DNA of 23,339 nt from Tubulanus polymorphus (Eukaryota > Nemertea > Palaeonemertea > Tubulaniformes > Tubulanidae). A model generated the notes under the pieces. It ran no database searches and had not been told where the DNA came from. It saw only the letters and a program-made list of their open reading frames with translations. A program made the position numbers and the translations under genes. This document shows, piece by piece, positions 1 to 17,422 of the stretch (position 1 is the first letter of the stretch; the number at the start of each line of letters is the position of its first letter). The stretch lies in assembly GCF_964204645.1 (NCBI RefSeq), contig NW_027437491.1, forward strand, positions 1-23,339. The letters are read 5' to 3'.

Positions 1-173
1 GCTACTACTCAATTGCTTTAGGCCTATAAAGTAATTCGATAAGCCTACAAGTCGTGTGGAAGATTCCAATCAATCCGCAGTTGAACCACATGGAGAGTCT
101 TATGACAGATAGGCCTATGAGTCAGCTTGCCGCAACCGATGGTAAATCAGTTTAGTTATTCCATATCTTTTTA
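1..173 (+). repeat. Partial, diverged copy of the L unit (end of exon-like segment and intron start)
   Basis: From about position 45 this matches the exon-like segment seen at 3424-3537. It shares the words gattccaatcaatccgcag and agagtcttatgacagat, and the donor-like GATG|GTAAATCAG with the exon edge at 141. It ends at the same junction, tttttAGCCCAC (A at 173), that ends the other L copies. An extra aggcctat inside the exon region breaks the frame. It is a relic of the family that fills 2961-12976, cut by the window edge. Confidence 0.75.
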
Positions 174-555
174 GCCCACTTGGAACTGGTCTAGTACCTA
201 GCCGTTGGTTGTAGGGAACCGGTATTCGGTAACAACGACTGGTATTCAGACTAACTTGGAACTTAAGACCTTAAGTTGATTTTATTGGGAAATATAAGAC
301 CAAGATCTAGTAACGTGTCGTATACGGCTGAGTGTTTATGTGGTAGGTAGTTTAACTTGTACAGTCGGGTATTGGATGGTGCTGCCATCTTGGGTCCGGA
401 TGGTAGTCCGCAGGCAGAGGGGAGTCGTCTTCCAGAGTTGTTTAGCCAGTCGAAAACTGGTTGTTCGGGGAGACAGTCGTAATAAAACTACTGGCATATT
501 CTATCAGTCTATGCTTTTTATTTTAATCTCTAGTTCTCAGGAGCAGGAGTTGGAG
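174..555. other. No supported gene; unclassified spacer
   Basis: The first bases (agcccacttgga) resemble the S-element head but diverge within about 15 bp. The rest shows no splice-bounded coding signal and no clear repeat match elsewhere in the window. AATAAA occurs at 481-486. A single GCCATCTTGG (YY1-like) lies near 384. The open frame across 340-603 runs on into the minisatellite and has no recognisable domain. Confidence 0.5.
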
Positions 556-2640
556 TCTTCCAAGGCGGAGTGTGCTGGCGTGTCCACCGTACACGTCCGC
601 TGAAATAGTCGCTACTGTTCGTTCCTCAACGAGAGGACCGACATCCCTCGACATCGATCGTGCGAGAAGCTCGCTAAGGGGGCGCTGCTGTTTGTCCCTC
701 AACGAGAGGATCGACATCGATCGTGCGAGAAGCTCGCTAAGGGGCGCTGCTGTTCGACCCTCAACGAGAGAATCGACATCGATCGTGCGAGAGGCTCGCT
801 AAGGGGCGCTGCTGTTCGACCCTCAACGAGAGGATCGACATCACTCGCATCGGTCGTGCGAGAAGCTCGCTAAGGGCGCGCTGCTGTTCGACCCTCAACG
901 AGAGGACCGACATCGGTCGTGCGAGAAGCTCGCTAAGGGCGCGCTACTGTTCGTTCCTCAACGAGAGGACCGACATCGCTCGACATCAATCGTGCGAGAA
1001 GCTCGCTAAGGGGGCGCTGCTGTTCGACCCTCAACGAGAGGACCGACATCGCTCGACATCGGTCGTGCGCGAAGCTCGCTAAGGGCGCGCTGCTGTTCGT
1101 TCCTCAACGGGAGGATCGACGTTGCTCCAAATTGATCGTGCGAGAAGCTCGCTAAGGAGACGCCGCTGTTCGATCCTCAACGGGAGGACCGACATCGATC
1201 GTGCGAAAGGCTCGCTAAAGAGACACCGCTGTTCGATCCTCAACGGGAGGACCGACATCGATCGTGCGAGAAGCTCGTTAAGGAGACGCAGCTGTTCGAT
1301 CCTCAACGGGAGGACCGACAGCGATCGTGCGAGATGCTCGCCAATGGCGCGCTGCTGTTCGACCCTCAATGAGAGGACCGATGTTGCTCCAAATTGATCG
1401 TGCGAGAAGCTCGCTAAGGAGTCGCCGCTGTTCGATCCTCAATGAGAGGACTGACTTCGCTCGACTTTGATCGTGCAAAAGGCTTGCTAGGGAGACGCCG
1501 CTGTTCGTTCCTCAACGGGAGGACCGAGATCGATCGTACGAGAAGCTTGTTAAGGAGACGCCGCTGTTCGACCCTCAATGAGAGGACCGATGTTGCTCCA
1601 AATTGATCGTGCGAGAAGCTCGCTGAGGAGTCGCCGCTGTTCGATCCTCAATGAGAGGACTGACTTCACTCGACTTTGATCGTGCAAAAGGCTTGCTAGG
1701 GAGACGCCGCTGTTCGATCCTCAACGGGAGGACCGACATCGATCGTGCGAGAAGCTCGTTAAGGAGACGCCGCCGTTCGATCCTCAACGGGAGGACCGAG
1801 ATCGATCGTACGAGAAGCTTGTTAAGGAGACGCCGCTGTTCGTTCCTCAACGAGAGGACCGACATCGCTCGACATTGGTCGTGCGAGAAGCTCGCTTAGG
1901 GCGCGCTGCTGTTCGTTCCTCAACAGGAGGACCGACGTTGCTCCAAATTGATCGTGCGAGAAGCTCGCTAAGGAGTCGCCGCTGTTCGATCCTCAACGGG
2001 AGGACCGACATCGATCGTGCGAAAGGCTCGCTAAAGAGACGCCGCTGTTCGATCCTCAACGGGAGGACCGACATCGATCGTGCGAGAAGCTCGTTAAGGA
2101 GACGCCGCCGTTCGATCCTCAACGGGAGGACCGACATGGATCGTGCGAGATGCTCGCTAATGGCGCGCTGCTGTTCGACCCTCAACGAGAGGACCGATGT
2201 TGACCGATGTCTCCAAATTGATCGTAGGAGAAGCTTGCTAAGGAGTCGCCGCTGTTCGATCCTCTACGAGAGGATCGACTATGATCGTGCAAAAGGCTTG
2301 CTAGGGAGACGCCGCTGTTCGTTCCTCAACGGGAGGACCGAGATCGATCGTGCGAGAAGCTCGCTAAGGAGGCGCCGCTGTTCGATCCTCAACGAGAGAA
2401 CCGACATCGCTTGACATCGTTTGTGCAATAGAGACGTGTCTACCGTTCACGTTCGCTTAAGAGAATGCCGCCGTTCGGTTCTCAACGCGGGAACCGACGT
2501 CTCTCGACATTGTTCGCGTGGGAAAGACGAGTCTAGTGTCCTCAACACGAGGGCCGACAACGACCGATAACGTTTGTGTAGGGAGTTCACTGAATTAAGC
2601 ACTGTTGTCCGTTCTCAACGCGAGGACCGACGTCGACCGA
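556..2640. repeat. CpG-rich minisatellite, 63-bp and 72-74-bp units
   Basis: About 27-30 units run head to tail. Each has GATCGTGCGAGAAGCTCGC, a GCCGCTGTTCGATCC-type block, then CTCAACGGGAGGACCGAC. The spacing of the GCGAG word is 63 bp (for example 1140, 1203, 1266, 1329), or 72-74 bp when a short spacer such as GCTCCAAATT or GCTCGACATC is present. Two small inverted repeats recur in every unit: GCGAG-aag-CTCGC, and TCCTC-5nt-GAGGA. A 209-bp higher-order unit (73+73+63) begins at 1382 and repeats at 1591. Units decay from about 2410 to 2640. Because 63 is a multiple of 3, long frames stay open on both strands by structure, so these frames are not evidence of coding. Confidence 0.9.
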
Positions 2641-2870
2641 CATTGACCGTTTAACTGTTACAGAGAGTGGAAGTAGAAGGGGACATCTTGGCAACAAGTT
2701 CCGGGCAAAAGCAGAACGACCCTGAACAGCAGCCGCCGGTCCCCTAAGAGGGATTGGAGTGTTTCGGCTGCGACATTTAGTTCCGCTATTTAACGTACAT
2801 TGTCGCTGATTGGCTGATTTACGCCGCACATGCGCACGGAGGTGCGCAACTTAGAAAATTCAAGGAAAGT
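2641..2870 (-). promoter_or_regulatory. GC-rich, promoter-like patch (minus orientation), tentative
   Basis: This stretch is clearly more GC-rich than the DNA to its right. Read on the minus strand it has an NRF1-like GTGCGCATGTGCG at about 2827-2839 and CAGCCAATCAGCG (CCAAT box) at about 2804-2816. TTAAATAG, weakly TATA-like, follows about 20 bp downstream. A promoter here would fire leftward into the minisatellite. There is no transcript evidence and no clear first exon, so this is inference from motif clustering. It could equally be part of a mobile element's end. Confidence 0.25.
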
Positions 2871-2879
2871 GTAGAGAAA

Positions 2880-2962
2880 ATAGAGCGGCTAGAGCAAGAC
2901 TCAAACCCGGGCAAGTAAATTACTAGCGCAGCGTCATCCCACTAGATCACCGAGCTCGTGAA
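2880..2962 (-). repeat. tRNA-derived (SINE-like) relic
   Basis: On the minus strand the A-box-like TGATCTAGTGGG (2949-2938) resembles the Glu/Asp-type GGTCTAGTGG core of eukaryotic tRNAs. About 30 nt inward is CCCGGG, then GTTTGAGTC (2906-2898), one base off the B-box pattern GWTCRANNC. The short outer words GAGC and GCTC can pair as a partial acceptor stem. The anticodon arm does not fold well, so this is not a functional tRNA gene. A Pol III promoter relic of a SINE is the best reading. Confidence 0.4.
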
Positions 2963-3172
2963 AACCAACCGAATGTTTTCAGATGCAAGATGGCCGTTCT
3001 GTTTCCTATTTTGTACCAAAAAAATGTCAATTTTGGCCTCAATTTCAACTAGGCCTACTACTCAATTGCTTATGCATGTTCATATTTTTTATTTTCATAG
3101 GAAGATGGACCACCGCGTTCGGTACGAGTCGTGCAGAAGATTCCAATCAATCCACAGGTTAACCACATTTTT
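2961..3172 (+). repeat. Truncated L unit (P block plus 5' part of the exon-like segment)
   Basis: It matches the block before the other exon copies: gatgcaagatggccgt, a degraded 'cctcaatttcaactaggcctactactcaattgcttatgcatg', and the acceptor attttcatag|GAAGATGG with the exon starting at 3111. Homology stops near 3170, inside the exon, and jumps to ttttgttcgctgaaatcagc, which belongs to an earlier part of the same unit. The breakpoint looks like unequal recombination or a template switch between L copies. Confidence 0.7.
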
Positions 3173-3568
3173 GTTCGCTGAAATCAGCACTTTCCTACTC
3201 ATTTTTGAAGTTTTCAAGGGAATTTTGAAGACACTGATCGAATTACCTTGATCTATCAGATCGTGTACTCGAAGGTTCCATCAGCATGAGAGAAATTTTG
3301 GGTCAATCGGATGCAAGATGGCCATCCTGTGACCTTTTTTCGTACCCAAAAAATATCAATTTTTGTCTCAATTTCAACCACTACTCAATTGCTTATGCAT
3401 GTTCATATTTTTAATTTTCGCAGGAAAATGGACCACCGAGTTCGATACAATTGGTGTGGAAGATTCCAATCAATCCGCAGTTGAATCACATAGAGAGAGT
3501 CTTATGGTAGATACGAGTCAACTTTCCGAGACCGATGGTAAATCAGTTTAGTTATTTCATACCTTTTT
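3173..3568 (+). repeat. L unit, P block plus exon copy C
   Basis: This contains the P block (gctgaaatcagcacttt, gaagttttcaagggaatttt, ttgatctatcagat, gcaagatggcc), a pyrimidine-rich stretch, the 114-bp exon copy C (3424-3537), and the downstream block gtaaatcagtttagttattt up to the AGCCCAC junction at 3569. P also resembles the S-element 5' region, so the two families share an ancestral segment. Confidence 0.8.
3424..3537 (+). CDS. Exon-like segment copy C, 38 codons, phase 1-1
   Basis: The acceptor is taattttcgcag| and the donor GATG|GTAAATCAG. The segment is 114 bp with phase 1 at both ends, so it can be added or skipped without shifting a frame. The frame is open throughout. The peptide includes WTTEFDTIGVED, SNQSAVES and SQLSETDG and is polar, acidic and Ser/Thr-rich, with no recognised domain. 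It recurs at 8482-8595 and 10936-11049 (open) and at 6058-6172 (frameshifted). Differences among the copies are largely amino-acid changing (E/K, H/Y, V/T, T/M), which suggests relaxed selection or diversification. Its phase also fits the exon at 13729. It could be a duplicated internal exon of a real gene, an exon captured by a rolling-circle element, or a chance frame in a repeat. Product unknown. Confidence 0.45.
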
Positions 3569-3830
3569 AGCCCACTAGGGACTTTAGACCGAAAGTCGAT
3601 TATTTGGGATATTTCTCTAAAACTTTTGAACACATACTGTAGGCCTACCTGAATTTGATCATCATACTACCAGTGAAACTGGTATATTGTGGGTTGACTG
3701 TAAATCAATTTTAACAATATGTTTCCGTGCCTACCATTTGAAATTATAATCAAATCATCAAAAATCAATGGTTCGTAGGCATGGAAACTCAGGACGCATA
3801 TTGTTAGAATTTCAAAAATGGCTTATTTTT
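3569..3830 (+). repeat. L unit, U block (left part, split by S1)
   Basis: It begins AGCCCACTAGGGACTTTAG, close to the S head, and runs to ggcttattttt, where S1 is inserted. The same DNA without an insertion is seen at 8627-8886 and 11081-11330. It includes ccagtgaaactggta, a small palindrome, and the words ttacca...ggttcgtaggcatgga. No coding signal is seen. Confidence 0.8.
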
Positions 3831-4523
3831 AGCCTACTTGGGAGTCCCAGCGGGCTATTGCGTTCACTTTTCGTCCGTCCGTCCGTAGACGGAATCCAGT
3901 TATTTTGGGAAGTTTTGAAGACGCTTCAAGGTAACGTCTTGATATTTGGGTTACACGTGTATCTACCCTAGACACATCTTCAGCCCAAAAACTGACCCTG
4001 TCAGAATCAAGATGGCTGACTGGCAGCCATTGTTGTTCGCCAAAATCAGCACTTTTTACACATTTTTGAACTTTTTGAGGGAAATTTTAAAGACGCTTCG
4101 ATCAATTACCTTGATCTTTCGGATATATGTGAATCCCCCCAGGGCCCATCAACGAAACAAAAATTGGGTCGGTCGGACTCAAGATGGCCGTCCTATGACC
4201 TTTTTAGTGCCCAAAAATGTTAATTTTTGCCCGAATTCTGAGTCCTGTAGCTTCCTACTGGTTTACCATTTCTCAATGCAATTTGTGATGGGTATTCTTT
4301 GGAAAGGGATGTTTTATACCTCAGACAGGTATTTTTCATCAGCCAATTATGACACAATTGGCGGCCATCTTGGTGTCACCAGTACTCATTCGTAAGTGGG
4401 AAAAAGTTTTTCCACATTATATTGATACCTAAGCGTATTTTGCTACCACAATCAATTAGAAAGTTGTAGCTCATAACGTGTTCTATGATTGTGGTGAGTT
4501 TCAAGGTAATTGGATTTCGTATA

Positions 4524-4542
4524 TGGCCACCAGGGGGCGTTG
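4524..4542 (+). promoter_or_regulatory. CTCF-like motif, S1 monomer 1
   Basis: TGGCCACCAGGGGGCGTTG agrees at 17 of 19 positions with the vertebrate CTCF consensus as I recall it (TGGCCACCAGGGGGCGCTA). CTCF occurs across bilaterians with a conserved zinc-finger core. Occupancy is untested. Confidence 0.5.
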
Positions 4543-4677
4543 AATAATACAATATCTTAGCATTTCTTTATTATATTCGTACCTATGCATATTTTGTAAC
4601 CACAATCAATTGGAAAGTTGTAGCTCATGACATCATCTATGATTGTTGTGAGTTTTAAGGACATTAGTTTTTCTATA

Positions 4678-4696
4678 TGGTCACCAGGTGGCGTTG
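4678..4696 (+). promoter_or_regulatory. CTCF-like motif, S1 monomer 2
   Basis: TGGTCACCAGGTGGCGTTG has the same orientation and position in the monomer. GGTGGC is also an accepted CTCF core variant. Confidence 0.45.
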
Positions 4697-4737
4697 AATA
4701 GTAGAATAACTTAGTATTTCCTTATTATATTGGTACC

Positions 4738-4921
4738 AAGGGCGTACTCTTTTATGACCTCCGAAGTCTCCGTCCGAAATCTCCGGTTGGCTCCACACAA
4801 AATCCGAATCACACCACCTCGACAGAAAGGAGGTTTCGGAGACTCCAAAAAGTCACGTGACCAATAAAAGAGTACGATTGGAGGCAAACGGATTCTCCGA
4901 TCTGATAAAAGAGTTCGCTCC
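4738..4921. mobile_element. Small palindromic MITE-like insertion in S1
   Basis: Comparison with the uninterrupted monomer in S3 (ggtacctaggcat near 10371) shows 184 extra bases between ggtacc and taggcat. The ends are related inverted repeats, GGGCGTACTCTTTTAT at the left and ATAAAAGAGTTCGCTC at the right. A second inverted match, ATAAAAGAGTACG at 4863, pairs perfectly with CGTACTCTTTTAT at 4745. The interior has inverted cctccgaagtctcc/ggagactcc words and a TCACGTGA. A 2-bp CC duplication is possible but uncertain. No coding capacity. Superfamily not assigned. Confidence 0.65.
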
Positions 4922-5015
4922 TAGGCATATTTTGTTACCATGATCAATTGCAAAGTTGTAGTTCATGACATGTTCTATGATTGTGGTGAGTTTCGAGGTC
5001 ATTGGGTTTTGAATA

Positions 5016-5034
5016 TGGTCACCAGGGGGCGTTG
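5016..5034 (+). promoter_or_regulatory. CTCF-like motif, S1 monomer 3
   Basis: TGGTCACCAGGGGGCGTTG, a strong core in the same orientation as the others. Confidence 0.5.
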
Positions 5035-5169
5035 AATAGTAGAATGACTTAGTATTTCCATACTAAATTGGTAACGAGGCATATTTTGTTATCACAATCA
5101 ATTACAAAATCGTAGCTGCTGACATGTTCTATGATTTTGGTGAGTTTCAAGGTCGTTGGTTTTTGTAAA

Positions 5170-5188
5170 TGGTCACCAGGGGGCGTTG
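5170..5188 (+). promoter_or_regulatory. CTCF-like motif, S1 monomer 4
   Basis: TGGTCACCAGGGGGCGTTG, 154 bp after the previous site. Confidence 0.5.
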
Positions 5189-5261
5189 AATATTGAAATT
5201 GTTAGATTGTTGAGCATTTGAAACCATTTCCCAAATGGGCATGGTGTCCCTGGACCCCTAG

Positions 5262-5720
5262 TTTCTCATTTCAACATGCGAAAATGAAAACTTTTTGGCA
5301 ATCTTTCAATACAGCGTAAAATGGATATAAAAACAATGGTTTATTAAAACTGCACAGTTTCACTGGTCGTATTAAAACCAATTAGGCGTATGTGTTCAAA
5401 ACATTAATGTATAGGCCTATTAATGTATATTATTCATCACATAGGAATCCCCGAATTGAGGGAAATCTATGATAGAATGTATTGTTATAACACAGGAAAC
5501 CCAGAGTTAGATTGGTCTGATGGTAAAATCTATCATATGGATTATTATGTACTATAAGACAAATGACCCAATAGGTCGGTACAATCTATCATGTGGAATG
5601 TATTAGTTATTACACAGGAAACCAGCTGTTTCATGGACCCAATAGATTGGTTCAATCTATAAAATGTAATGGGCCCTATATCATTCATAGAAATATATTA
5701 ATTTAATTGATTTAACGTAT
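5262..5720 (+). repeat. L unit, rest of U plus T block
   Basis: It resumes U after S1 (tctcatttcaacatgcgaaa) and then enters T. T is a degenerate ~75-100-bp internal repeat built from acaggaaacc, gacccaataggtcggta, caatctatcatgtgg and aatgtattagttatta. The order U-T-P-exon is the same in the other copies (8887-9345, 11325-11437, 12400-12740). Not coding. Confidence 0.8.
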
Positions 5721-6203
5721 TTATATACATGCATCTACCCTAGATACATCTTCTGCCCAAAAACTGAGCTTGGTCAGAATCAACATGGTTGACTGGTGGC
5801 CTTTTTTGTTCGCTGAAATCAGCACTTTCTTACTCATTTTTGAAGTTTTCAAGGGAATTTTGAAGATTCTGATCAATTACCTTGATCTATCAGATTGTAT
5901 ACCCGAAGGGTGCATCGGCATGAGAGAAATTTTGGGTCAATCGGATGCAAGATGGCCGTCCTGTGACCTTTTATCGTACCCAAAAAATGTCAATTTTGGT
6001 CTCAATTTCAACCACTACTCAATTGCTTATGCATGTTCATATTTTTGATTTTTACAGGAAGATGGACCACCGAGTTCGATACAAATTGGTGTGAAAGATG
6101 CCAATCAATCTGCAGTTGAATCACATAGAGAGAGTCTTATGACAGATATGAGTCGACTTTCCACAACCGATGGTAAATCAGTTTAGTTATTTCATACCTT
6201 TTT
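5721..6203 (+). repeat. L unit, P block plus exon copy D
   Basis: It starts tatatacatgcatctaccc and continues with gcttggtcagaatcaacatgg, the P words, the exon-like copy D, and ends at the junction tttttAGCC (A at 6204). After the junction the sequence differs from U (see 6204-6329). Confidence 0.8.
6058..6172 (+). pseudogene. Exon-like segment copy D, frameshifted
   Basis: Acceptor (gatttttacag|) and donor (GATG|GTAAATCAG) are intact. The segment is 115 bp instead of 114 because of one extra A in acaaattggtg, which breaks the frame. If transcribed and spliced in, it would disrupt the frame that copies C, E and F keep. This is the main evidence that not every copy is under coding constraint. 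Confidence 0.55.
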
Positions 6204-6329
6204 AGCCACATGAAATGGACTTAAGCGGGTTATCGCATCCGCTTTGTGTCATTGTCCCGAGCTTGACAGAATCCAGTTATTCTGATACATTTTGAAATCA
6301 GCACTTTTAGACATTGTTTGAACCTTTTT
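6204..6329. repeat. Chimeric junction segment before S2
   Basis: agccacatgaaatggacttaa and cgggttatcgcatccgctttgtgtc look like a second, diverged S head (compare gggctattgcgttcacttttcgtc), followed by agaatccagttattctg and a piece of P (gaaatcagcacttttaga). It appears to be a truncated older S copy into whose remains S2 inserted. Confidence 0.55.
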
Positions 6330-7496
6330 AGCCCACTTGGGACTTTAGTCCCAGTGGGCTATTGCGTTCACTTTTCGTCCATTGTCCGTCATAGCGTACG
6401 TCCGTCCGTAGACGGAATCCAGTTATTTTGGGAAGTTTTGAAGACGCTTCAATGTAATGTCTTGATATTTGGGTTACACATGTATCTACCCTAGACACAT
6501 CTTCAGCCCCAAAACTGGCCCTGTCAGAATCAAGATGGCCGACTGGCAGCCATTGATGTTCGCCAAAATCAACACTTTTTACACATTTTTTAACTTTTTG
6601 AGGGAACTTTTTGATCTTTCGGATGTATGTGCATCCCCCCAGGGCCCATCAGCATAACAAAAATTGGGTCGATCGAACTCAAGATGGCCATCCTATGACC
6701 TTTTTTAATGCCAAAAAATGTCAATTTTCGCCTGAATTCCGAGTCCTGTAGCTTCCTACTTGTTTGCCATTTCTCATTGCAATTTGTGATGGGTATTCTT
6801 AAGAAAGGGATGTTTTATACCTGAGACAGGTATTTTTGATCAGCCAATTATGACGCAATTGGCGGCCATCTTGGTGTCATCAGTACTCATTCCTAGGTGG
6901 GAAAAAAATTTTCCACATTATATTGATACCTAGGTGTATTTTGTTACCACAATCAATAAGAAAGTTGTAGCTCATAACATGATCTATGATTGTGGTGAGT
7001 TTCAAGGTCATTGGTTTTGTATATGGCCCAGTGTGCATTGAATAATACAATATCTTTCCATATTATATTCGTATCAATGCATATTTTGTAACCACAATCA
7101 ATTGCAAAGTTGTAGCTCATGACATCATCTATGATTGTGGCAAGTTTTAAGGACATTAGTTATTCTATATGGTCACCAAGAAGCATTGAATAGTAGAATA
7201 ACTTAGTATTTCCTTATATTGGTACCTAGGCTTATTTTGTTACCATGATCAATTAGAAAGTTTTAGTTCATGACATGTTCTATGATCTAGTATTTCCATA
7301 TTAAATTGGTAACAAGGCATATTTTGTCATCACAATCCATGAAATCATTCCTCCTGACATTTACCATGATTGTGGTGAGTTTCAAGGCCATTGGTTTTTG
7401 TATATGGTCACCAGGGGGCGTTGAATATTGAAATTGTTAGATTGTTGAGCATACGGAAACATTTCTCAAGTGGGCATGGTGTCCCTGGACCCCTAG
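6330..7496 (+). mobile_element. S2, Helentron-like non-autonomous element
   Basis: The 5' terminal hairpin is intact: AGCCCACTTGGGACT pairs with AGTCCCAGTGGGCT apart from one bulged base. The head region is like S1 but lacks about 30 bp near 6605. Monomers follow; the array is shorter because of a deletion near 7285-7290. The 3' tail is tcaagtgggcatggtgtccc and ends in CTAG at 7496. Flanks are T-runs on the left (ttttt) and tt on the right. Two of its CTCF-like sites have decayed (ggcccagtgtgcattg near 7025; ggtcaccaagaagcattg near 7170), which suggests age. Confidence 0.78.
7405..7423 (+). promoter_or_regulatory. CTCF-like motif, last S2 monomer
   Basis: TGGTCACCAGGGGGCGTTG is intact although the neighbouring sites in S2 are eroded. 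Confidence 0.45.
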
Positions 7497-8130
7497 TTCA
7501 AGTTTTCATGGGAAATATTGAAAACGCTTCGATCATTTATCTCAATTTCTCTCATTCGCAGTAAATAACTTGGCCTCATGACTTGCTCTAACATGAATTG
7601 CCCTAAGATTGTGGTGAGTTTCTAGGCATTGTTTATGTTCACCGGTGGCGTTAATTAGCCGAAGAATATGGTACTACAGTATATTAGTACCTAGACATAT
7701 GACGTTGTTACCACAAACAATTGCATGTTGTGCCAGTGCATGAAATGCCCTATGGTAATGGTGATTCTTGACATTTCCAGATTGTTCAGTATTTCACCAA
7801 GTACTAACTAGAAGGACCCATTATGTTTGTTAAAGTCTATCATGCTGAATATAAAATATTTATCACATAGGAATCCCCCAGTTTGAGGGAAATCTATGAC
7901 AGAATGTATTATTATAACACAGGAAACCCACAGTTAGATTGGTCTGGTAAAATCTATCATATGGATTATTATGTACTATAAGACAAAGGACGCAATAGGT
8001 CGGTACAATCTATCATGTGGAATGTATTAGTTATTACACAGGAAACCAGCTGTTTGATGGACCCAATAGATAGGTACAATCTATAGAATGTAATAGGCCC
8101 ATTATCATTTATAGAAATATATTAATGTAA
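7497..8130 (+). repeat. L unit variant: diverged monomer-like block plus T block
   Basis: 7560-7800 holds a diverged S-like monomer (gattgtggtgagtttctagg, ttcaccggtggcgttaatt). A second word set (attgcatgttgtgccagtgcatgaaatgc, ttgacattt..agattgt, caccaagtact) recurs at 12285-12390. T follows from about 7860 with tctatcatatgg and tctatcatgtgg repeats. No gene is seen. Confidence 0.7.
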
Positions 8131-8626
8131 TTGATTTAATGTATTTATATACATGTATCTACCCTAGATACATCTTCTGCCCAAAAACTGAGCTTGGTCA
8201 GAATCAACATGGTTGACTAGTGGCCATTTTTGTTCGCTGAAGTCAGCACTTTCTTACTCATTTTTGAAGTTTTCAAGGGAATTTTGAAGATTCTGATTAA
8301 TTACCTTGATCTATCAGATTCTATACCCGAAGGGTGCATCGGCATGAGAGAAATTTTGGGTCAATCGGACGCAAGATGGCCGTCCTGTGACCTTTTTTCG
8401 TACCCAAAAAATGTCAATTTTTGTCTCAATTTCAACCACTACTCAATTGCTTATGCATGTTCATATTTTTAATTTTCACAGGAAGATGGACCACAGAGTT
8501 CGATACAATTGGTGTGAAAGATTCCAATCAATCCGCAGTTGAATCATATAGAGAGAGTCTTATGACAGATACGAGTCAACTTTCCGCAACTGATGGTAAA
8601 TCAGTTTAGTTATTTCATACCTTTTT
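8131..8626 (+). repeat. L unit, P block plus exon copy E
   Basis: Same order as 5721-6203: catgtatctaccctagatac, P words, polypyrimidine tract, exon E, gtaaatcagtttag, junction at 8627. Confidence 0.82.
8482..8595 (+). CDS. Exon-like segment copy E, 38 codons, phase 1-1
   Basis: The acceptor taattttcacag| is a strong 3' splice site and the donor is GATG|GTAAATCAG. The segment is 114 bp and open in the phase-1 frame, with WTTEFDTIGVKD, SNQSAVESYRES and SQLSATDG. Compared with copy C it changes K/R, E/K, H/Y, V/T and E/A. The frame closes soon after the donor (aaatcagtttag), as expected for an intron. Function unknown. Same interpretation and doubts as copy C. Confidence 0.45.
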
Positions 8627-9345
8627 AGCCCACTAGGGACTTTAGACCGAAAGTCGATTATTTGGGATATTTCTCTAAAACTTTTGAACACATTGTAGGC
8701 CTACCTGAATTTAGCTTCATACTACCAGTGAAACTGTTATATTGGGGGTTGACTGTAAATCAATTTTAACAATATGTTTCCGTGCTTACCATTTGAAATT
8801 ATAATCAAATCATCAAAAATCAATGGTTCGTAGGCATGGAAACTCAGGACGCATATTGTTAGAATTTCAAAAATGGCTTATTTTTTCTCATTTCAACATG
8901 CGAAAATGAAAACTTTTTGGCAATCCTTCAATACAGCGTAAAATGGATATAAAAACAATGGTTTATTAAAACTGCACGGTTTCACTGGTCGTATTAAAAC
9001 CAATTAGATGTATGTGTTCAAAACATTAATGTATATTAATGTATATTATTCATCACATAGGAATCCCCGAATTGAGGGAAATCTATTATAGAATGTATTG
9101 TTTTAACACAGAAAACCCACAGTTAGATTGGTCTGGTAAAATCTATCATGTGGATTATTATGTACTATAAGACAAAGGACCCAATAGGTCGGTACAATCT
9201 ATCATGTGGAATGTATTAGTTATTACACAGGCAACCAGCTGTTTGATGGACCCAATAGATAGGTACAATCTATAAAATGTAATAGGCCCATTATCATTTA
9301 TAGAAATATATTAATGTAATTGATTTAATGTATTTATATACATGT
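8627..9345 (+). repeat. L unit, uninterrupted U plus T blocks
   Basis: This shows U without the S insertion. The sequence gcttattttttctcatttc at 8877-8895 is the empty site for S1. T runs from about 9030 to 9310. It ends at tatttatatacatgtatc, where P begins. Confidence 0.8.
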
Positions 9346-9454
9346 ATCTACCCTAGATACATCTTCTGCCCAAAAACTGAGCTTGGTCAGAATTAACATG
9401 GTTGACTGGTGGCCATTTCTGTTTGCTGAAATCAGCACTTTCTTACTCATTTTT
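9346..9454 (+). repeat. L unit, P block (left part, split by S3)
   Basis: ctaccctagatacatcttc through tcagcactttcttactcattttt. The P block is interrupted by S3 and resumes at 10718 with ttgaagttttcaaggg. Confidence 0.8.
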
Positions 9455-10163
9455 AGCCCACTTGGGACTTTAGTCCCAGCGGGCTATTGCGTTCACTTTT
9501 CGTCCGTCGTCTGTCCGTCCGTCTGTAGACGGAATCCAGTTATTTTGGGAAGTTTTGAAGACGCTTCAAGGTAACGTCTTGATATTTGGGATACACATGT
9601 ATCTACCCTAGACACATCTTCAGCCCAAAAACTGGCCCTGTCAGAATCAAGATGGCCGACTGGCAGCCATTGTTGTTCGCCAAAATCAGCACTTTTTACA
9701 CATTTTTGATCTTTTTGAGAGAAATTTTGAAGACGCTTCGATCAATTACCTTGATCTTTCGGATATACGTGAATCCCCCCAGGGCCCATCAACATAACAA
9801 AAATTGGGTCGGTCGGACTCGAGATGGCCGTCCTATGACCTTTTTAGTGCCCAAAAATGTTAATTTTTGCCCGAATTCTGAGTCCTGTAGCTTCCTACTG
9901 GTTTGCCATTTCTCATTGCAATTTGTGATGGGTATTCTTTGGAAAGGGATGTTTTATACCTGAGACAGGTATTTTTCATCAGCCAATTATGACGCAATTG
10001 GCGGCCATCTTGGTCTCACCAGTACTCATTCGTAAATGGGAAAAAGTTTTTCCACATTATATTGATACCTAAGCGTATTTTGGTACCACATTCAATTAGA
10101 AAGTTGTAGCTCATAACATGTTCTATGATTATGGTGTGTTGCAAGGTAATTAGATTTTGTATA

Positions 10164-10182
10164 TGGCCACCAGGGGGCGTTG
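10164..10182 (+). promoter_or_regulatory. CTCF-like motif, S3 monomer 1
   Basis: TGGCCACCAGGGGGCGTTG, identical to the first S1 site. Confidence 0.5.
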
Positions 10183-10317
10183 AATAATACAATATCTTAG
10201 CATTTCTTTATTATATTTGTACCTATGTATATTTTGTAACCACAATCAATTGGAAAGTTGTAGCTCATGACATCATCTATGATTGTTGTGAGTTTTAAGG
10301 ACATTAGTTTTTCTATA

Positions 10318-10336
10318 TGGTCACCAGGGCGCGTTG
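10318..10336 (+). promoter_or_regulatory. CTCF-like motif, S3 monomer 2
   Basis: TGGTCACCAGGGCGCGTTG, with one change in the G-run; 154 bp from the previous site. Confidence 0.4.
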
Positions 10337-10471
10337 AATAGTAGAATAACTAAGTATTTCCTTATTATATTGGTACCTAGGCATATTTTGTTACCATGAT
10401 CAATTGCAAAGTTGTAGTTCATGACATGTTCTATGATTGTGGTAAGTTTTGATGTCATTGGGTTTTGAATA

Positions 10472-10490
10472 TGGTCTCCAGGGGGCGTTG
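10472..10490 (+). promoter_or_regulatory. CTCF-like motif, S3 monomer 3
   Basis: TGGTCTCCAGGGGGCGTTG; 154 bp from the previous site. Confidence 0.4.
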
Positions 10491-10625
10491 AATAGTAGAA
10501 TAACTTAGTATTTCCATATCAAATTGGTAACGAGGCATATTTTGTTATCACAATCAATTACAAAATCGTAGCTGCTGACATGTTCTATGATTGTGGTGAG
10601 TTTCAAGGTCATTGGTTTTTGTATA

Positions 10626-10644
10626 TGGTTGCCAGGGGGCGTTG
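10626..10644 (+). promoter_or_regulatory. CTCF-like motif, S3 monomer 4
   Basis: TGGTTGCCAGGGGGCGTTG; again 154 bp. The four S3 sites are exactly periodic at 154 bp. Confidence 0.4.
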
Positions 10645-10717
10645 AATATTGAAATTGTTAGATTGTTGAGCATTTGGAACCACTTCCCAAGTGGGCATGG
10701 TGTCCCTGGACCCCTAG

Positions 10718-11080
10718 TTGAAGTTTTCAAGGGAATTTTGAAGACTCTGATCAATTACCTTGATCTATCAGATTGTATACCCGAAGGGTGCATCGGCATG
10801 AGAGAAATTTTTGGTCAATCGGACGCAAGATGGCCGTCCTGTGACCTTTTTTCGTACCCAAAAAATATCAATTTTGGTCTCAATTTCAACCACTACTCAA
10901 TTGCTTATGCATGTTCATATTTTTAATTTTCACAGGAAAATGGACCACCAAGTTCGATACAATTGGTGTGAAAGATTCCAATCAATCCGCAGTTGAATCA
11001 CATAGAGAGAGTCTTATGGTAGATATGAGTCAACTTTCCGCAACTGATGGTAAATCAGTTTAGTTATTTCATACCTTTTT
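10718..11080 (+). repeat. L unit, P block (right part) plus exon copy F
   Basis: It resumes at ttgaagttttcaaggg after S3, passes through gcaagatggccgtcctgtga and the polypyrimidine tract, and ends at junction 11081. Confidence 0.82.
10936..11049 (+). CDS. Exon-like segment copy F, 38 codons, phase 1-1
   Basis: The acceptor taattttcacag| and donor GATG|GTAAATCAG are identical to those of copy E. The frame is open, with WTTKFDTIGVKD, SNQSAVESHRES and MSQLSATDG. It is the last copy before the exon at 13729. Ending GAT-G, it supplies the first base of a glycine codon completed by GC at the start of that exon, so splicing F to 13729 keeps the frame. No known domain is recognised. Confidence 0.45.
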
Positions 11081-11437
11081 AGCCCACTAGGGAACGAAAG
11101 TCAATTTTTTTGGGATATTTCTCTAAAACTTTTGAACACATACCTGAATTTGATCTTCATACTACCAGTGAAACTGTTATATTGGGGGTTGACCGTAAAT
11201 CAATTTTAACAATATGTTTCCGCGCCTACCATTTGAAATTATAATCAAATCATCAAAAATCAATGGTTCGTAGGTATGGAAACTCAGGACGCATATTGTT
11301 AGAATTTCAAAAATGGCTTATTTTTTCTCATTTCAACATGCGAAAATGAAAACTTTTTGGCAATCCTTCAATACAGTGTAAAGTGGATATAAAAACGATG
11401 GTTTATTAATACTGCGCAGTTTGACTGGTCGTATTAA
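11081..11437 (+). repeat. L unit, U block with T start truncated by S4
   Basis: AGCCCACTAGGGAACGAAAG opens the block. A small deletion has removed the 'ctttagacc' part. An empty S1 site lies at 11318-11333. Homology to the other copies stops after ctggtcgtattaa (near 11436), where S4 begins. Confidence 0.78.
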
Positions 11438-11587
11438 GGGTGCTCCTATCCCTTAATTATCAAAATTTTCCATTTTCGACATTATATTGATACCTAAACA
11501 TATTGTATTACCACAATCTATTGAAAGTTGTAGCTCATAAGGTGTTCTATGATTTTGGTTAGCTTCAAGGTCATCGGTTTTTGTATA

Positions 11588-11606
11588 TGGTCACCAGGGG
11601 GCGTTA
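11588..11606 (+). promoter_or_regulatory. CTCF-like motif, S4 monomer 1
   Basis: TGGTCACCAGGGGGCGTTA. Further, weaker sites follow at 11752 (one G lost) and 12050 (TGGTTACCAGGGGCGCTGA). Confidence 0.4.
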
Positions 11607-11893
11607 AATAATACAATAACTTAGTATTTCTATATTATGTCTGTACCTATGCATATTTTGTTACCACAATTAATTGCAAAGTTATAGCTCATGACATCGT
11701 CTATGTATGTGGTGAGTTTTAAGGACATGAGTTATTATATATGGTCACCAGGGGCGTTGAATAGTAGAATAACTTAGTATTTCCTTATAGATTGGTATCT
11801 AGGCATATTTTGTTACCATGATCAATTGCAAAGTTGTAGTTCATGACATGTTCTTTGATTGTGGTGAGTTTCGAGGTCATTGGGTTTTGCATA

Positions 11894-11912
11894 TGGTCAC
11901 CAGGGGGCATTG
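11894..11912 (+). promoter_or_regulatory. CTCF-like motif, S4 monomer 3
   Basis: TGGTCACCAGGGGGCATTG, one C-to-T/G-to-A change from the family form at the CpG. Confidence 0.35.
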
Positions 11913-12132
11913 AATAGTAGAATAACTTAGTATTTCCATATTAAATCGGTAACGAGGCATATTTTGTTATCACAATCAATTACAAAATCGTAGCTGTTGA
12001 CTTATTCTAATTGATTGTGGTGAGTTTCAGGGTCATTGGTTTTTGTATCTGGTTACCAGGGGCGCTGAATATTGAAATTGTTAGATTGTTGAGCATTTGA
12101 AACTACCTGGCATGGTGTCACTGGACTGCTAG

Positions 12133-12976
12133 TTTACTTATTTTTGAAGTTTTCATGGGGAATTTTGAGGACACTCTACTTGATCTATCAGATTGTATTC
12201 CTGAAGGGTGCGTCAGCATGAGAGAGATTTTGGGCAAATCGGATACAAGATGGCCGTCCTGTGACCTTTTTGTACCAAAAAATGTGACGTTATTACCACA
12301 AGAAATTGCAAGTTGTGCCAGTGCATGAAATGCTCTATCGTAATGGTAATTCTTGACATTTGCAGATTGTCAGGTATTTCACCAAGTACTTACTAATCAC
12401 CTTGAGGGACCCAATATGTTTGTTAAAGTCTATATTCATACTGAATATATATTATTTTTCACATGCCCCGTTTGAGGGAAATCTATGATAGAATGTATTT
12501 ATAACACAGTAAACCCAAAGTTAGATTGGTCTGGTCAAATCTATCATATGGATTATTTTGTATTATTAGGGCCCAACAGGTCGGTACAAACTATCATGTG
12601 GAATGTATTAGTTATTACAGAGGAAACCATCTGTTTGATTGACCCAATAGATAGGTACAATCTATAATCTATAATCTATAAAATGTAATAGGCCCTATAT
12701 CATTTATAAAAATATATTAATGCAATTGATATAATTTATTTATATACATGTATCTACCCTAGATACACTTTTTTACAAAATACTAGCTTAGTCAGAATCA
12801 ACATGGTTGACTGGCGGCCATTTTTTGTTTGCTGAAATCAGCATTTTTTACTTATTTTTGAAGTTTTCAAGGGAAATATTGAGGACACTCTGCTTGATCT
12901 ATCAGATTGCATTCCTGAAGGGTGCGTCAGCATGAGAGAGATTTTGGGTCAATCGGATGCAACATGGCCGTCCTGA
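12133..12976 (+). repeat. Two further partial L units without the exon
   Basis: 12133-12285 and 12740-12976 are P blocks (gaagttttcaaggg, gatctatcagattg, catgagagagattttggg, atggccgtcctg). Between them lie the monomer-like word set shared with 7700-7800 and a T block (12400-12735) with an aatctat triplet repeat near 12658-12677. Homology stops at 12976 (cgtcctgagttttaagg), before the polypyrimidine tract and exon. This is the right edge of the L array. Confidence 0.78.
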
Positions 12977-13728
12977 GTTTTAAGGTCACATGAGCAATTG
13001 TAATTTAAAACATAACCAATACATATTCTTCAGATTATTCTCGGGTCGAAATTCAATATTATGATGTAGTGCAAAGTTGCAGATTATGTCCCTATGAACA
13101 TGTACATCAAGTTTTACAGGGATGCATTATTCATCATGGCCACCAAGCAGTGCTAAATATCAATGGTTGAAATTAACCGTAATAACATTTGAAAGCAGTT
13201 TAGTTTTACTAGTATATCATAAAGAATATATAAAGTTTAAAGGTCATACCTTTTTCGATATGCTGCCAGGCTGAGGCGATGTTTAATATACATACAATAT
13301 AATAGTGCACTTCCCGAGTTTCAATGTCACAATTTTGATATCCCTACCCAGGTAGCTTACTTTCAAAAAGGTTAATTTAAATAGCTCAAGTACCTGAACA
13401 AGTAGTGCCTCCCACTTTGACTGTGCACGTATGTTTTATATAATTTGACGGGTCATGTATTCAAATTGGTCAATTAAGGGAAAAAATGATACCTTGTTTC
13501 TCCGCTCTACCTAGCTTAAAGTTAATTTACCCTGCAGCCTATCTACCCAGTACATTATTTTTCTAATCACTATCAGGCATACAATTATAGACCCTGCAGC
13601 TATAGAAATGAACTGATTACAAATTTTATTGGAATTTACACTATTTCCCGGCAGCTGCAGAGAAACAAAGTATCATTTTTTAACCTAAACCAAATATAGA
13701 AATAAATGAATTTTCTTTCTTTTAATAG
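12977..13728. other. Repeat-poor interval, no supported gene
   Basis: AT-rich sequence with no match to the L or S families apart from its first few bases and no splice-bounded open frame. It ends in a clear polypyrimidine tract (ttttctttcttttaatag). Under the gene model suggested here it is intron. Confidence 0.5.
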
Positions 13729-13909
13729 GCAGAATGAAAACACGAAGGCGCTGGTCATCGGATGAAGATAAAATATTTCATACGATCTTGCATTCGTTCC
13801 AACAGAATGCCTAATCGTGAACTTTTGGACGAAGCCACTAAAATGCTGACAAAGAAAATTATAAAAAAGAGAAAGATTCCAAATAAACTTATAATGATGT
13901 ATAATCCAG
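13729..13909 (+). CDS. Candidate exon with a Myb/SANT-like motif, one frameshift
   Basis: The acceptor ttctttcttttaatag| is strong and the donor is CCAG|GTGTTTGTG. The first frame gives KTRRRWSSDEDKIFHTIL, the start of a Myb/SANT-like helix (basic run, Trp, Ser-x-Glu/Asp-Glu/Asp), and stops after FQQNA. One base over, the frame continues with RMPNRELLDEATKMLTKK and IIKKRKIPNKLIMMY. Together they resemble a single ~58-residue basic helical domain broken by one base. Tryptophan-led SANT-like domains of this layout are common at the C-termini of transposon-related proteins in marine invertebrates. In its first frame the exon begins in phase 1, matching the L-exon donor. In its second frame it ends in phase 1, matching 15913. 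It is either a decayed exon or carries a sequencing error. Confidence 0.45.
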
Positions 13910-14068
13910 GTGTTTGTGTTAAATTCACAGGCTTTACCCAAATATCGATTTGATTTTTCTAGGAACCGTATACACATTAGACTGCGCTAAACTTGGATAA
14001 TTCCTAATTATTGATGTTTAGACAAACATGAGATCAAAATTGAACTGATCCCGATTAGCCAATGATAA

Positions 14069-14152
14069 CAATTGAAACCTATTCAATTCTCAACCCCTTC
14101 TGACAAAGTTTGATTTAAACTTTGTCAGATGGGGTTGATATAGGTTTCGATA
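14069..14152. repeat. Imperfect hairpin, 21-bp central stem
   Basis: CAACCCCTTCTGACAAAGTTT (14091-14111) pairs with 14117-14137 with one mismatch across a 5-nt loop (GATTT). Beyond small bulges the outer words ATTGAAACCTAT and ATAGGTTTCGAT also pair. Its size is in the range of a metazoan pre-miRNA hairpin, but the loop is small and a short palindromic MITE is at least as likely. Confidence 0.6.
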
Positions 14153-14434
14153 ATACAAGACATAGTGGAATTAGGATTAAGGCCTACGTGTATGCGCAAG
14201 CACTCTTCGATTTTGAAGGATAAACTACATGTATATTGATGACTATGCTGAGTTGATTTAGTAATTTGGTGAATTCAAAGGAAGGAACAGTGCAGGAACT
14301 TCCTCACATTGCCAAACGTTTCCATGTGGATATGCAGCGGCACTTGAATATGCCATATTACATGAATCCATACATCCCTTCCATTCTCTTGGATTATGCC
14401 AATGCAGTACCGTGAAAACAGAAAATAAAATTAT

Positions 14435-14700
14435 TTCACAGGAAACCACTTAGAATGGTCTATTAAAGTCTCCCATATGGGTATCGGAATGTATAAGTTT
14501 GATATAAGACCATATTTGACCCAATAGATAGTACAATCATGTATCATGTGATATATATTAGTTACTACAGAAAACCAACTGTTTGATGGACCCAACAGAT
14601 AGGTACAAATATCAAAAGAAATATATTAGTTATTACTGAGGGCCCCAATATGTCTGTTTAATATTATCTCATAAACTCAACAGTTTGAAACGGGGGAAAT
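14435..14700. repeat. Diverged T-type repeat array
   Basis: acaggaaaccact, gacccaatagatagtaca, tgtatcatgtgatatatattag, gatggacccaacagata and gaaatatattagttatt match the T block of L in order, with many changes. Further T-like patches lie at 15535-15690 and 16770-16990. Confidence 0.6.
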
Positions 14701-15763
14701 CTTATGATATGAAATGAGAGACTACGTAGAAAAAACCAGTGCCTGTGGCTACTAGTCGACAATTTCTAAATTAATTTTCCTGTGCGATTTGGTTTCGTAC
14801 AATTGAGAGACTACTTTTTTCAGTAGGGCATCTTTTGGATCACATCACTGGAAATTGGCTTGTGCTTTTGGGCCCCTTCGTTGGTTATCTACAAATGTTT
14901 CATATAAGCTATCGACCACAATGCTGACACCGAGATGGTCAGAAACTGACCAATTGAGATATGATCCCCGAGTCTGAACGATTCAGACTTCGAATGTCGG
15001 AAAATTCTCAAGCCATGTTTGTTTACAAACTACCAAGTATTCATCATTGCAAATTCATAAGCTGACCAACACTGACCACTACTGACGAATTACAATTTCA
15101 CGAACATGAGAACGATATACCGCGTTTGGTGTGAAACTAGAAAAGATTCGCCATTGAAGATTCATAAATTGACCATTGACCACCAATGACCAATTCAAAA
15201 CGAATAAGATCACAATACAATGATTTACCCCCACTTTCATCCAACAGCACGATACCATTTAATTGAATCATTAAACGCATTGGGCTTCTGATATTTGAAA
15301 TCATTTGTTACAATGAAGTTGATCCTAAGACTTGATCACCTGCGCTACAGAAAACGTACAAGACGAAATTTTAAGATTGTAAAATCCGATTAGGTGATCG
15401 TCATTATGACGACAGCTCCATCTCTGTAATTCTTAAGAGATTAGAACCACTTCTGGGTCGTCAATACAATTAAACTTTGACTCGAAATAATGTTTAATTT
15501 ACTAATTTGAATAAGCAGTTCAAACTTGGGACTCATAAGGTGATGACCCAATAGACCTGTACATAATGTTTCCGCAGTTTGAGGCACCCAATAAGTCTGT
15601 TAAATCTATGGAATATATAATTTTTAGTATGAACCCATATAGGTCCCAATAGGTAAGTAAAGTCTACCATATGAATATATATAAAATTATGTACCGTACA
15701 GTAATATCAGGATACACAGCCGACATCGGGGATTCGTGATTAAATATTCACATCTTAGATGAA

Positions 15764-15875
15764 TTCTAGAGGCCATAAGAGCTAATTTTGACCACTTTGA
15801 CCAATTTTCTAGAGGCCATAAGAGCTAATTTTGACCACTTTGACCAATTTTCTAGAGGCCATAAGAGCTAATTTT
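15764..15875 (+). repeat. 43-bp tandem repeat, about 2.6 copies
   Basis: TTCTAGAGGCCATAAGAGC starts at 15764, 15807 and 15850, an exact period of 43 bp. The first two copies are essentially identical; the third breaks off at agctaattttt, just before the polypyrimidine tract of the exon at 15913. Confidence 0.95.
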
Positions 15876-15912
15876 TTTAAAAATACATTTTCTTTTCTTC
15901 CAAATTTCCTAG

Positions 15913-16032
15913 ATCCGCCTGGTAATGAAAATGGCATCTTAGGTACCGGGTATACGATTGATACTATTGAGTCAAAACTTCATCAAAATCGAAAACAAAT
16001 GGTTCAATTGGATCGAAGATTTAGATTTGTTT
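15913..16032 (+). CDS. Candidate terminal exon, 39 codons plus stop
   Basis: The acceptor ttttcttccaaatttcctag| is strong. With the phase-1 base from 13909 the frame reads DPPGNENGILGTGYTIDTIE, then SKLHQNRKQMVQLDRRFRFV and TAA at 16030-16032. The C-terminus is basic (KLHQNRKQ, DRRFRF). AATAAA lies 117 bp downstream. The phase match with the upstream exon and the nearby poly(A) signal support a last exon. No domain is recognised. A chance frame cannot be excluded because it is short. Confidence 0.45.
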
Positions 16033-16148
16033 AAATCCGTTTACTGGGCAACTTTCATGAAAAAAACCTGCCTGGTTCAGTGCGGCCGCCTACCGTAAAC
16101 ACTTGTTTTTCTGGTCATTCCACCTGATGATGGCTGTGGTTTCATAGT

Positions 16149-16154
16149 AATAAA
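16149..16154 (+). terminator. Polyadenylation signal AATAAA
   Basis: A canonical hexamer within catagtAATAAAtttgatcg, at normal 3'-UTR distance from the stop at 16032. The downstream sequence is T-rich. It supports the end of a plus-strand transcript. Confidence 0.4.
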
Positions 16155-16254
16155 TTTGATCGTATAATCTTAAATTTGAAGTGTAGGATTTCTTCATTTA
16201 TCTACAGTATACACGGATTATAGTGTTTATTCGACATCTATTAAGCAATCCTTT

Positions 16255-16465
16255 AGCTAAGACTATCTCAGTGGTTATTATTGTGGCATTTCACTGTCAA
16301 AGGGCTATGCTTACAACAACTTAAATTGGACAGCTCATATATGACCAAACTCAAACTTGTTCTTTTGTTACATGTGGCCCGTACACAGAAAATCCCAACT
16401 GCTTTAAATATCACCGTATTTGTGCCTCAGAACAAAATGCTGCTGTTTGCAATTCGGACTAATTT
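16255..16465 (+). pseudogene. Cysteine-rich, frame-broken coding-like fragment
   Basis: One frame (from GACTATCTCAGTGG) reads YYCGISLSKGYAYNNLNWTA and stops at TGA near 16342. One base over, the frame reads TCSFVTCGPYTENPNCFK and YHRICASEQNAAVCNSD before TAA at 16460-16462. Six cysteines in about 65 residues over two adjoining frames look like a decayed extracellular cysteine-rich domain. The pattern does not match Kazal, EGF or WSC well enough to name. No clear splice sites are seen. A C-run (16474-16485) follows. Confidence 0.25.
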
Positions 16466-17172
16466 GATACTCCCCCCCCCCCTTAAATGCAGAATAACAT
16501 TTATTATGGCGTCTTGGGTTATTCAATTATTGGTGCGGCATGTCGCTTTACGGTCGTAGGTGGCACGTCCCTGATCGAGTAGCTAGGCGTTCGCGTTCGG
16601 TATTTTTGAAAAGCGTCGGCTGTTTGCGAGGCCGGTGGTGTATCGGAGGGTGCGAGGCTGGTTGTGTATCGGGGGTGTATGGAGATGACTATTACAAAGG
16701 AAACGAACCGTTCTGTTGGTCTCGAAATCATATACCGGGTACCCGATATACCGGTATGCTATTTAAGTTTTATACAAGACCCAATAAGGACTGTCGTGCC
16801 CCGAATTCTCTGCTGGTGCTTGAGTCCCAGGTCTCAAATGGTCGTTCTATCTATCATGTGGAATGGCATGCAATGGGCTATAACACATTGAAAACCCAAT
16901 ATTCGAGGGACTGTGTGTGTATGTGTGTGTGTGTAATGGTCCTATGGATCAGTTTCGTATAAAAACATGACCCACTAATACTGTATCAGATTAGTGTGGA
17001 GTATATATTTGTTACGAAAGCGTCGACTTATTTCGCAATATCCGAGTCTAAATTCATTTATTTGTCTATCCATTAATAAATCAGCCATACCTTTTTCATC
17101 AAAATGAACAATACATGAAACAGCATATTTGTATAACAAAATCGTCAACCGGTCGCATAACGAAGGCCTGCC
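16466..17172. other. Mixed low-complexity and T-like repeats, no supported gene
   Basis: It contains a poly-C run (16474-16485), a GC-richer patch (16545-16670) with the near-repeat gtgtatcggagg/gtgtatcgggggt, the palindromic accgggtacccgatataccggt (about 16735-16756), diverged T words (tctatcatgtggaatggc) and a GT microsatellite (16911-16936). The 140-codon frame across 16540-16962 spans these unrelated repeats and ends in the microsatellite, so it is not supported. Confidence 0.5.
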
Positions 17173-17340
17173 CTTATGAAAATGGTACACGTGTATTTAG
17201 CTAAATACACGTGTAATATGAAATTACACGTGTACTTTTGACGTGTATTTTGAAATACACGTGTAACTTATGACGTGTATTTTAAAAACACGTGTAAATT
17301 CATATGTGGCTTCTGAAATACACGTGCAATCTGGATGCAT
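17173..17340 (+). repeat. Left inverted end and ACACGTGT cluster
   Basis: Six CACGTG cores plus two GACGTGTA variants, separated by AT-rich spacers, starting at the terminal repeat. AATACACGTGTATTT-type extended palindromes recur. CACGTG is the canonical E-box bound by Myc/Max, USF and MITF-type bHLH proteins. Confidence 0.8.
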
Positions 17341-17422
17341 GTACTAGGCTAAAAAATTATACATGTACCTTGTTTCTCATAATTGGTCACTTTTGTAATC
17401 TGCAATAAAATTTGTAATTACA

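What the first reader, a model, noticed from the sequence alone, without database searches (positions are those of the whole stretch)
3111..11049. Tandemly amplified symmetric (phase 1-1) exon with conserved splice sites
A 114-bp segment bounded by a polypyrimidine-AG acceptor and GATG|GTAAATCAG donor occurs intact at 3424, 8482 and 10936, with a 1-bp frameshift at 6058 and partial copies at 3111 and 1-141. Both ends are phase 1, so any number of copies could be spliced together in frame to give a protein with 38-residue repeats. The copies ride on a ~1.2-kb repeat. Seen directly: splice words, length, frame. Inferred: that it is an exon array, captured or host-derived.
Basis: partly seen in the sequence, partly recalled or inferred. 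Interest (0 to 1): 0.85.

Follow-up and report, generated by a model that had tools for sequence, protein, structure and literature searches.

The report
Repeated exon inside giant worm transposon

Summary
The exon array is real: the 114-bp phase 1-1 segment is intact at 3424, 8482 and 10936, frameshifted at 6058 (115 bp), with relics at 3101 and 46-141. The window is a whole contig of the Tubulanus polymorphus (Nemertea) genome and most of one copy of a giant TIR element: 22 exact end motifs, six complete pairs of 9.4-30 kb, all eight junctions read lying in (TA)n. Joining 8482-8595 | 10936-11049 | 13729-13814 gives exactly the last 103 residues of NCBI model LOC141914458 isoform X2, two of the three predicted junctions. 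The terminal exon is a broken SANT/Myb-like domain; in two diverged relatives it is intact and lies behind tyrosine-recombinase-like exons. So the array is best read as the amplified 3' tail of a transposon recombinase gene whose catalytic exons were not found in the window family. Full-length copies number 2-6 per element. Replacement changes are 17 of 22, 16.1 expected; pooled pN/pS is 0.75 with a very wide interval. No clear selection and no host source was found. What moves the element is unresolved.

The parts
1..23339 (+). Interior of one giant TIR element; both ends lie outside this contig (about 1.2 kb to the left and 1.3 kb to the right by comparison with the C12 copy)
46..141 (+). 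Degenerate relic of the repeated exon; the donor GATG|gtaaatcag is kept, the frame is not
600..2430 (+). Minisatellite of 63/73-bp units inside the element, between the first relic and the array
3101..3168 (+). Partial relic of the exon. In the window copy it is cut short at 3168; in the C5, C12, C13 and 9.4-kb C6 copies it is longer, and the first exon of the NCBI model on C5 lies in it
3424..3537 (+). Exon copy A, 114 bp, phase 1-1, open frame
6058..6172 (+). Exon copy B, 115 bp, frameshifted; the same type occurs one to three times in each of the six other element regions read
8482..8595 (+). Exon copy C, 114 bp, phase 1-1, open; gives residues of LOC141914458 isoform X2 exactly
10936..11049 (+). 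Exon copy D, 114 bp, phase 1-1, open; gives residues of LOC141914458 isoform X2 exactly
13729..13814 (+). Terminal exon, phase-1 acceptor, first half of a SANT/Myb-like domain, then a stop
13815..13911 (+). Decayed remainder of the SANT/Myb-like domain in another frame
19766..20309 (.). Nested palindromic insertion of about 545 bp (250-nt arms, 95% complementary), TA at both edges; the C12, C5 and C9 copies lack it

Best explanation
The window is most of one copy of a giant, probably non-autonomous TIR DNA transposon of the ribbon worm Tubulanus polymorphus that sits in (TA)n microsatellites. The repeated 114-bp segment is a true exon of this element's resident gene: the exon before a C-terminal SANT/Myb-like exon, of a gene that in two diverged relatives includes tyrosine-recombinase-like exons. 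In the window family the catalytic exons were not found and the SANT exon is broken. The remaining exon-plus-intron tail has been duplicated head to tail. Symmetric phase 1-1 ends let any set of intact copies splice in frame, and an NCBI model splices copies C and D to the terminal exon. Shown: anatomy, copy numbers, ends, insertion sites, phases, identity with the model. Inferred: that RNA supports the model; that exon plus SANT exon is a partial 3' duplication of the recombinase gene; that ordinary tandem duplication made the array; that the short product does nothing selected.
For: Exon copies with splice words in every element region read. The window's C+D+terminal product equals residues 15-117 of P0008, an NCBI protein on a contig as long as C5. 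Intact SANT exon with phase-1 acceptor and stop in two relatives, C4:16918512-16918300 and C12:9955033-9954821, with recombinase-like exons 5.1 and 5.6 kb upstream on the same strand. 14 of 19 SANT loci outside the window-type family lie within 10 kb downstream of recombinase matches on the same strand; at most 1 did in 2000 random placements on approximate chromosome lengths. A family member's model resembles Xer, Cre, lambda integrase and topoisomerase IB. 22 exact end motifs, control 0, six complete inverted pairs. 5 of 5 left and 3 of 3 right junctions read lie in (TA)n. Arrays of 4, 5, 6, 5, 4, 2 and 3 full-length copies in seven element regions. Frameshifted copies multiplied too.
Against: No RNA read was seen; the NCBI model could be wrong. 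The recombinase gene of the relatives was not shown to hold a 38-aa-type exon between catalytic and SANT parts; there the 38-aa exons lie downstream of the intact SANT exon. For the C12:9.95-Mb relative a left end but no right end was found, and in C4 the right end is partial, so that the recombinase lies inside the element is likely, not proven. Pairwise pN is below pS in 30 of 45 (non-independent) pairs and pooled pN/pS is 0.75, interval 0.29-3.3, so weak constraint is not excluded. In the 6 pairs with one C4 copy the exon is 4-7% different while the upstream flank does not align, perhaps because of a breakpoint 53 bases upstream. The recombinase fold call rests on a low-confidence model.
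Confidence: 0.7

Rival explanations
1. The exon was captured from a host gene by the transposon and amplified there.
For: The SANT/Myb-like domain type also occurs in host proteins, and giant transposons can carry captured gene pieces (recalled).
Against: All 46 matches to the peptide lie in this element family. SANT-exon relatives sit beside recombinase matches in 14 of 19 loci.
Confidence: 0.1
2. A functional array: the element makes proteins with a variable number of 38-residue modules, kept by selection, for example to set the distance between a catalytic part and a DNA-binding SANT part.
For: Phase 1-1 ends, intact splice words in the full-length copies, open frames in three of four window copies, 2-6 copies per element, two NCBI models with two modules each, pooled pN/pS 0.75 with pN below pS in 30 of 45 pairs.
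Against: 17 of 22 changes are replacement, 16.1 expected; the pN/pS interval includes 1. In 13 of the 15 pairs with an alignable upstream flank the exon differs more than the flank. Frameshifted copy B was itself multiplied up to three times. The SANT exon is broken in all six window-type copies read.
Confidence: 0.12
3. Not an exon: a non-coding transposon repeat whose open frame and splice words are accidental, with NCBI's predictor misled.
For: No clear constraint; the segment moves with long non-coding units.
Against: The downstream exon is a SANT-like domain, intact with acceptor, phase and stop in relatives. Isoform numbers in such models usually reflect RNA evidence (recalled). The phases agree.
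Confidence: 0.08

Closest known systems
Crypton (tyrosine-recombinase DNA transposons)
   Same: Relatives of the element carry a tyrosine-recombinase-like gene with introns.
   Different: Cryptons are described as having neither TIRs nor long direct repeats (PMC3212892, passages read); this family has imperfect TIRs of about 25 bp and lies in (TA)n. No Pfam recombinase profile matched four family members from other sources or the L046 pieces; the C4 and C12 exons themselves were not run.
Starship giant transposons of fungi
   Same: Tens of kilobases, with a tyrosine recombinase (Starships known here from search listings and abstract starts only).
   Different: Animal host; no cargo gene recognised in what was scanned; recombinase not found in the window family and internal in its relatives.
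Sesarmid endogenous nimaviruses with a Ginger2-like integrase
   Same: Large elements with TIRs inserted in (AT/TA)n microsatellites (PMC10871703, abstract and passages read).
   Different: 265-285 kb viruses with a DDE-type integrase; no viral or DDE gene was recognised here in the pieces scanned.
MuTAnT, TA-microsatellite-targeting Mutator-like elements
   Same: TIR elements in TA microsatellites (PMC4486113, listing and abstract start only).
   Different: Plant elements; sequence not compared.
Tandemly duplicated symmetric exons in genes
   Same: A same-phase exon repeated with its introns (general knowledge).
   Different: Here the array is inside a transposon, shows no clear constraint and varies between copies in one genome.

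Membership tests
TIR DNA transposon | Inverted terminal repeats at both ends of several dispersed copies | tested here: met
   22 exact matches to the end pattern, 12 left-type and 10 right-type, control 0; six complete inverted pairs; TIR similarity score 43 against at most 28 in 2000 shuffles
TIR DNA transposon | Target-site duplication | tested here: inconclusive
   All 8 junctions read lie in (TA)n, so a TA duplication cannot be told from the target
TIR DNA transposon | DDE transposase in cis | tested here: inconclusive
   No Pfam family reached its cut-off for 8 chosen ORF or exon pieces; multi-exon genes could be missed, and the larger relatives were read only in part
Tyrosine-recombinase element | Tyrosine recombinase fold in the encoded protein | tested here: inconclusive
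Tyrosine-recombinase element | Recombinase gene present in the window family | tested here: not met
   tblastn of 7 recombinase sequences gave no match below E 0.1 in the window or the C12, C5, C9, two C6 and C13 regions; the relatives' own recombinase DNA matched only C4 and C12 9.96 Mb among 40 scored of 519 candidates
Crypton | No TIRs; short direct repeats at the ends | tested here: not met
   TIRs present; definition from PMC3212892
Tandem symmetric exon array | Repeated same-phase exon with flanking intron and splice sites | tested here: met
Tandem symmetric exon array | Splicing seen in RNA | not testable with these tools
   Only NCBI protein models were available
Selected protein repeat | Purifying selection on the exon | tested here: inconclusive
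   17 of 22 changes replacement, 16.1 expected; pooled pN/pS 0.75, codon bootstrap 0.29-3.3; exon diverges more than the upstream flank in 13 of 15 alignable pairs

The most novel reading that the evidence does not exclude
An animal giant transposon family moved by its own SANT-tailed tyrosine recombinase (an animal counterpart of fungal Starships, but with TIRs and a (TA)n target), in which the exon before the SANT DNA-binding domain is amplified and spliced in variable number, so that elements make recombinase tails or interfering tail proteins of different length.
Probability: 0.08. Interest if true: 0.78.

Novelty: new variant of a known kind. Interest (0 to 1): 0.5.

Why it matters
It shows tandem exon amplification inside a mobile element: closely similar copies in one genome carry two to six copies of a splice-ready symmetric exon. 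That makes the birth of an exon array open to study where selection seems weak or absent, and warns that a predicted repeat protein can be a by-product. It also draws attention to giant elements in a ribbon worm, and to relatives that join tyrosine-recombinase-like exons to a SANT-like exon, a family that no Pfam recombinase profile picked up in the members tested.

Tried and rejected
Rejected: origin from a single-copy host gene (no such match). A transposase in the window family: none of the 31 ORFs of 75 aa or more listed for the C12 copy looked like one by eye (the minisatellite was left out of that list), and 8 pieces reached no Pfam cut-off. Clear purifying selection on the exon, not excluded in weak form. 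A longer isoform of the NCBI model: a length-padded search over about 263-838 aa found none, so isoform X1 was not seen. Homology of the 38-aa exon to the linker exon of the L046 recombinase (both hold K-W-T and lie just before a SANT exon): too short to claim. No solved structure matched by sequence. Naming the species by COX1 did not complete; it rests on P0007 and P0008 and on contig lengths equal to C12 and C5.
Full report
1. Observation. The 114-bp segment is at 3424-3537, 8482-8595 and 10936-11049, and as a 115-bp copy at 6058-6172. All four follow a pyrimidine-rich stretch and AG and precede gtaaatcag. Relics lie at 46-141 and 3101-3168. The three 114-bp copies are open over 38 codons when one base is taken from upstream, and the four joins tried with the exon at 13729 stay in frame. 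Spacing is 2.4-2.6 kb, not 1.2 kb.

2. Where it is. The window is a complete contig (C74) of a 268-Mb genome in 77 contigs. Two NCBI proteins with the peptide come from contigs of 11,548,486 and 24,873,478 bases, the lengths of C12 and C5, and are named Tubulanus polymorphus, a palaeonemertean ribbon worm.

3. The element. The window aligns over long stretches to other places, for example 98.5% over 11.9 kb to C12 and 99.4% over 13.9 kb to C13; other blocks over 3 kb outside the minisatellite are 96-99%. The shared sequence stops, at all five left ends and three right ends read, inside a (TA)n tract. There the left end begins GTTTTATAAACGCCAACTTATCGGGAC and the right end, reversed, CTTAAAAACGCCCACTTAACGGGAC. 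Their local score is 43 against at most 28 in 2000 shuffles. A 20-base core pattern with up to one mismatch has 22 matches in the genome, all exact, 12 of left type and 10 of right type, none for the reversed control. Six pairs face each other: C5 (30.0 kb), C9 (25.6), C12 (27.4), C6 (9.4) and two on C47 (27.2 and 29.6). The two on C47 are head to tail about 60-70 bases apart; the bases between were not read. By comparison with C12 the window starts about 1.2 kb inside the left end and stops about 1.3 kb before the right end.

4. The array varies. Full-length exon copies: window A B C D; C12 A B C C D; C5 A B B B C D; C13 A B B C D; C9 A B C D; the 9.4-kb C6 copy A B; the C6 copy at 17.74 Mb, with no left end found, B B D. 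Type B, the frameshifted one, is multiplied as readily as the open ones. The 46 genome matches to the peptide lie on stretches that hold other parts of this family; counts are lower bounds.

5. Is it spliced? NCBI protein P0008 (LOC141914458 isoform X2) ends in 103 residues identical to the product of window 8482-8595 | 10936-11049 | 13729-13814. Exact copies of these exons lie on C5 at 15826039, 15828493 and 15831254; its first exon starts inside the partial relic at 15815183; copies A and B are skipped. P0007 (LOC141913846) has two modules of the diverged relative on C12, after an exon that lies in the same locus and resembles scattered places elsewhere at E 0.001 to 0.4. Isoform numbers in such models usually come from RNA evidence (recalled); I saw no reads.

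7. Is it selected? Among ten distinct open copies (of 13 given) there are 17 replacement and 5 silent changes, 16.1 of 22 expected replacement under neutrality, and no stop (chance of none 0.44). Pairwise, pN is below pS in 30 of 45 pairs; pooled pN/pS is 0.75 with a codon bootstrap of 0.29 to 3.3. Of 21 pairs compared with their flanks, 15 have an alignable 220 bases upstream, and in 13 of them the exon differs more than the flank (for example 6.1% against 3.6% for C and D), in 2 less; in the other 6, all with one C4 copy whose homology starts 53 bases upstream, the flank does not align while the exon differs by 4-7%. Pairs are not independent. So there is no clear constraint, and weak constraint is not excluded.

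8. Mechanism. Tandem duplication of exon-plus-intron blocks in a transposon, spread by transposition, with further gains and losses in single copies. Symmetric phase makes splicing tolerant of this. That the exon and the broken SANT exon are a partial 3' duplication of the recombinase gene is inferred from the order in the relatives: recombinase-like exons, intact SANT exon, two 38-aa exons, decayed SANT exon. What moves the family is open: a tyrosine recombinase from the relatives, or a DDE enzyme of the Ginger2 or Mutator kind, since both are reported for TIR elements in TA microsatellites.

9. Literature. PMC3212892, PMC10871703 and PMC6431247: passages read, and the abstract of PMC10871703 in part. 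Others: search listings with abstract starts. The rows listed by searches, in part capped lists, showed no paper on this element or on tandem exon arrays inside a transposon.

Noticed in passing
C2:9581500-9602024, C1:18273344-18293939, C6:16684077-16704319, C7:12045512-12066218, C12:9373976-9395322: A second family of large repeats (about 20 kb or more, five copies; a 4-kb query is 99-100% identical in them and smaller repeats follow in the same order) carries a SANT-tailed recombinase gene (L046). Ends not read.
   Followed up: partly
window 19766-20309: Palindromic insertion with 250-nt arms and TA at both edges, absent from three other copies: looks like a young nested foldback or mariner-type MITE.
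   Followed up: partly
window 17190-17330 and 22690-23140: Two clusters of the palindromic word ACACGTGTA in the 3' part of the element (by eye; the second also).
   Followed up: no
C12:10377013-10377300: A 96-aa ORF near the right end, outside the window, that by eye looks a little like an RNA-recognition fold; no Pfam match.
   Followed up: partly
C13:216734-225446 and C6:8769222-8777934: 8.7 kb identical at 100% between an unplaced contig and the 9.4-kb C6 copy, with different left flanks: perhaps a very recent move with an internal deletion.
   Followed up: no
C47:31187-31258: Two elements head to tail about 60-70 bases apart, as if one inserted in the microsatellite beside the other.
   Followed up: no
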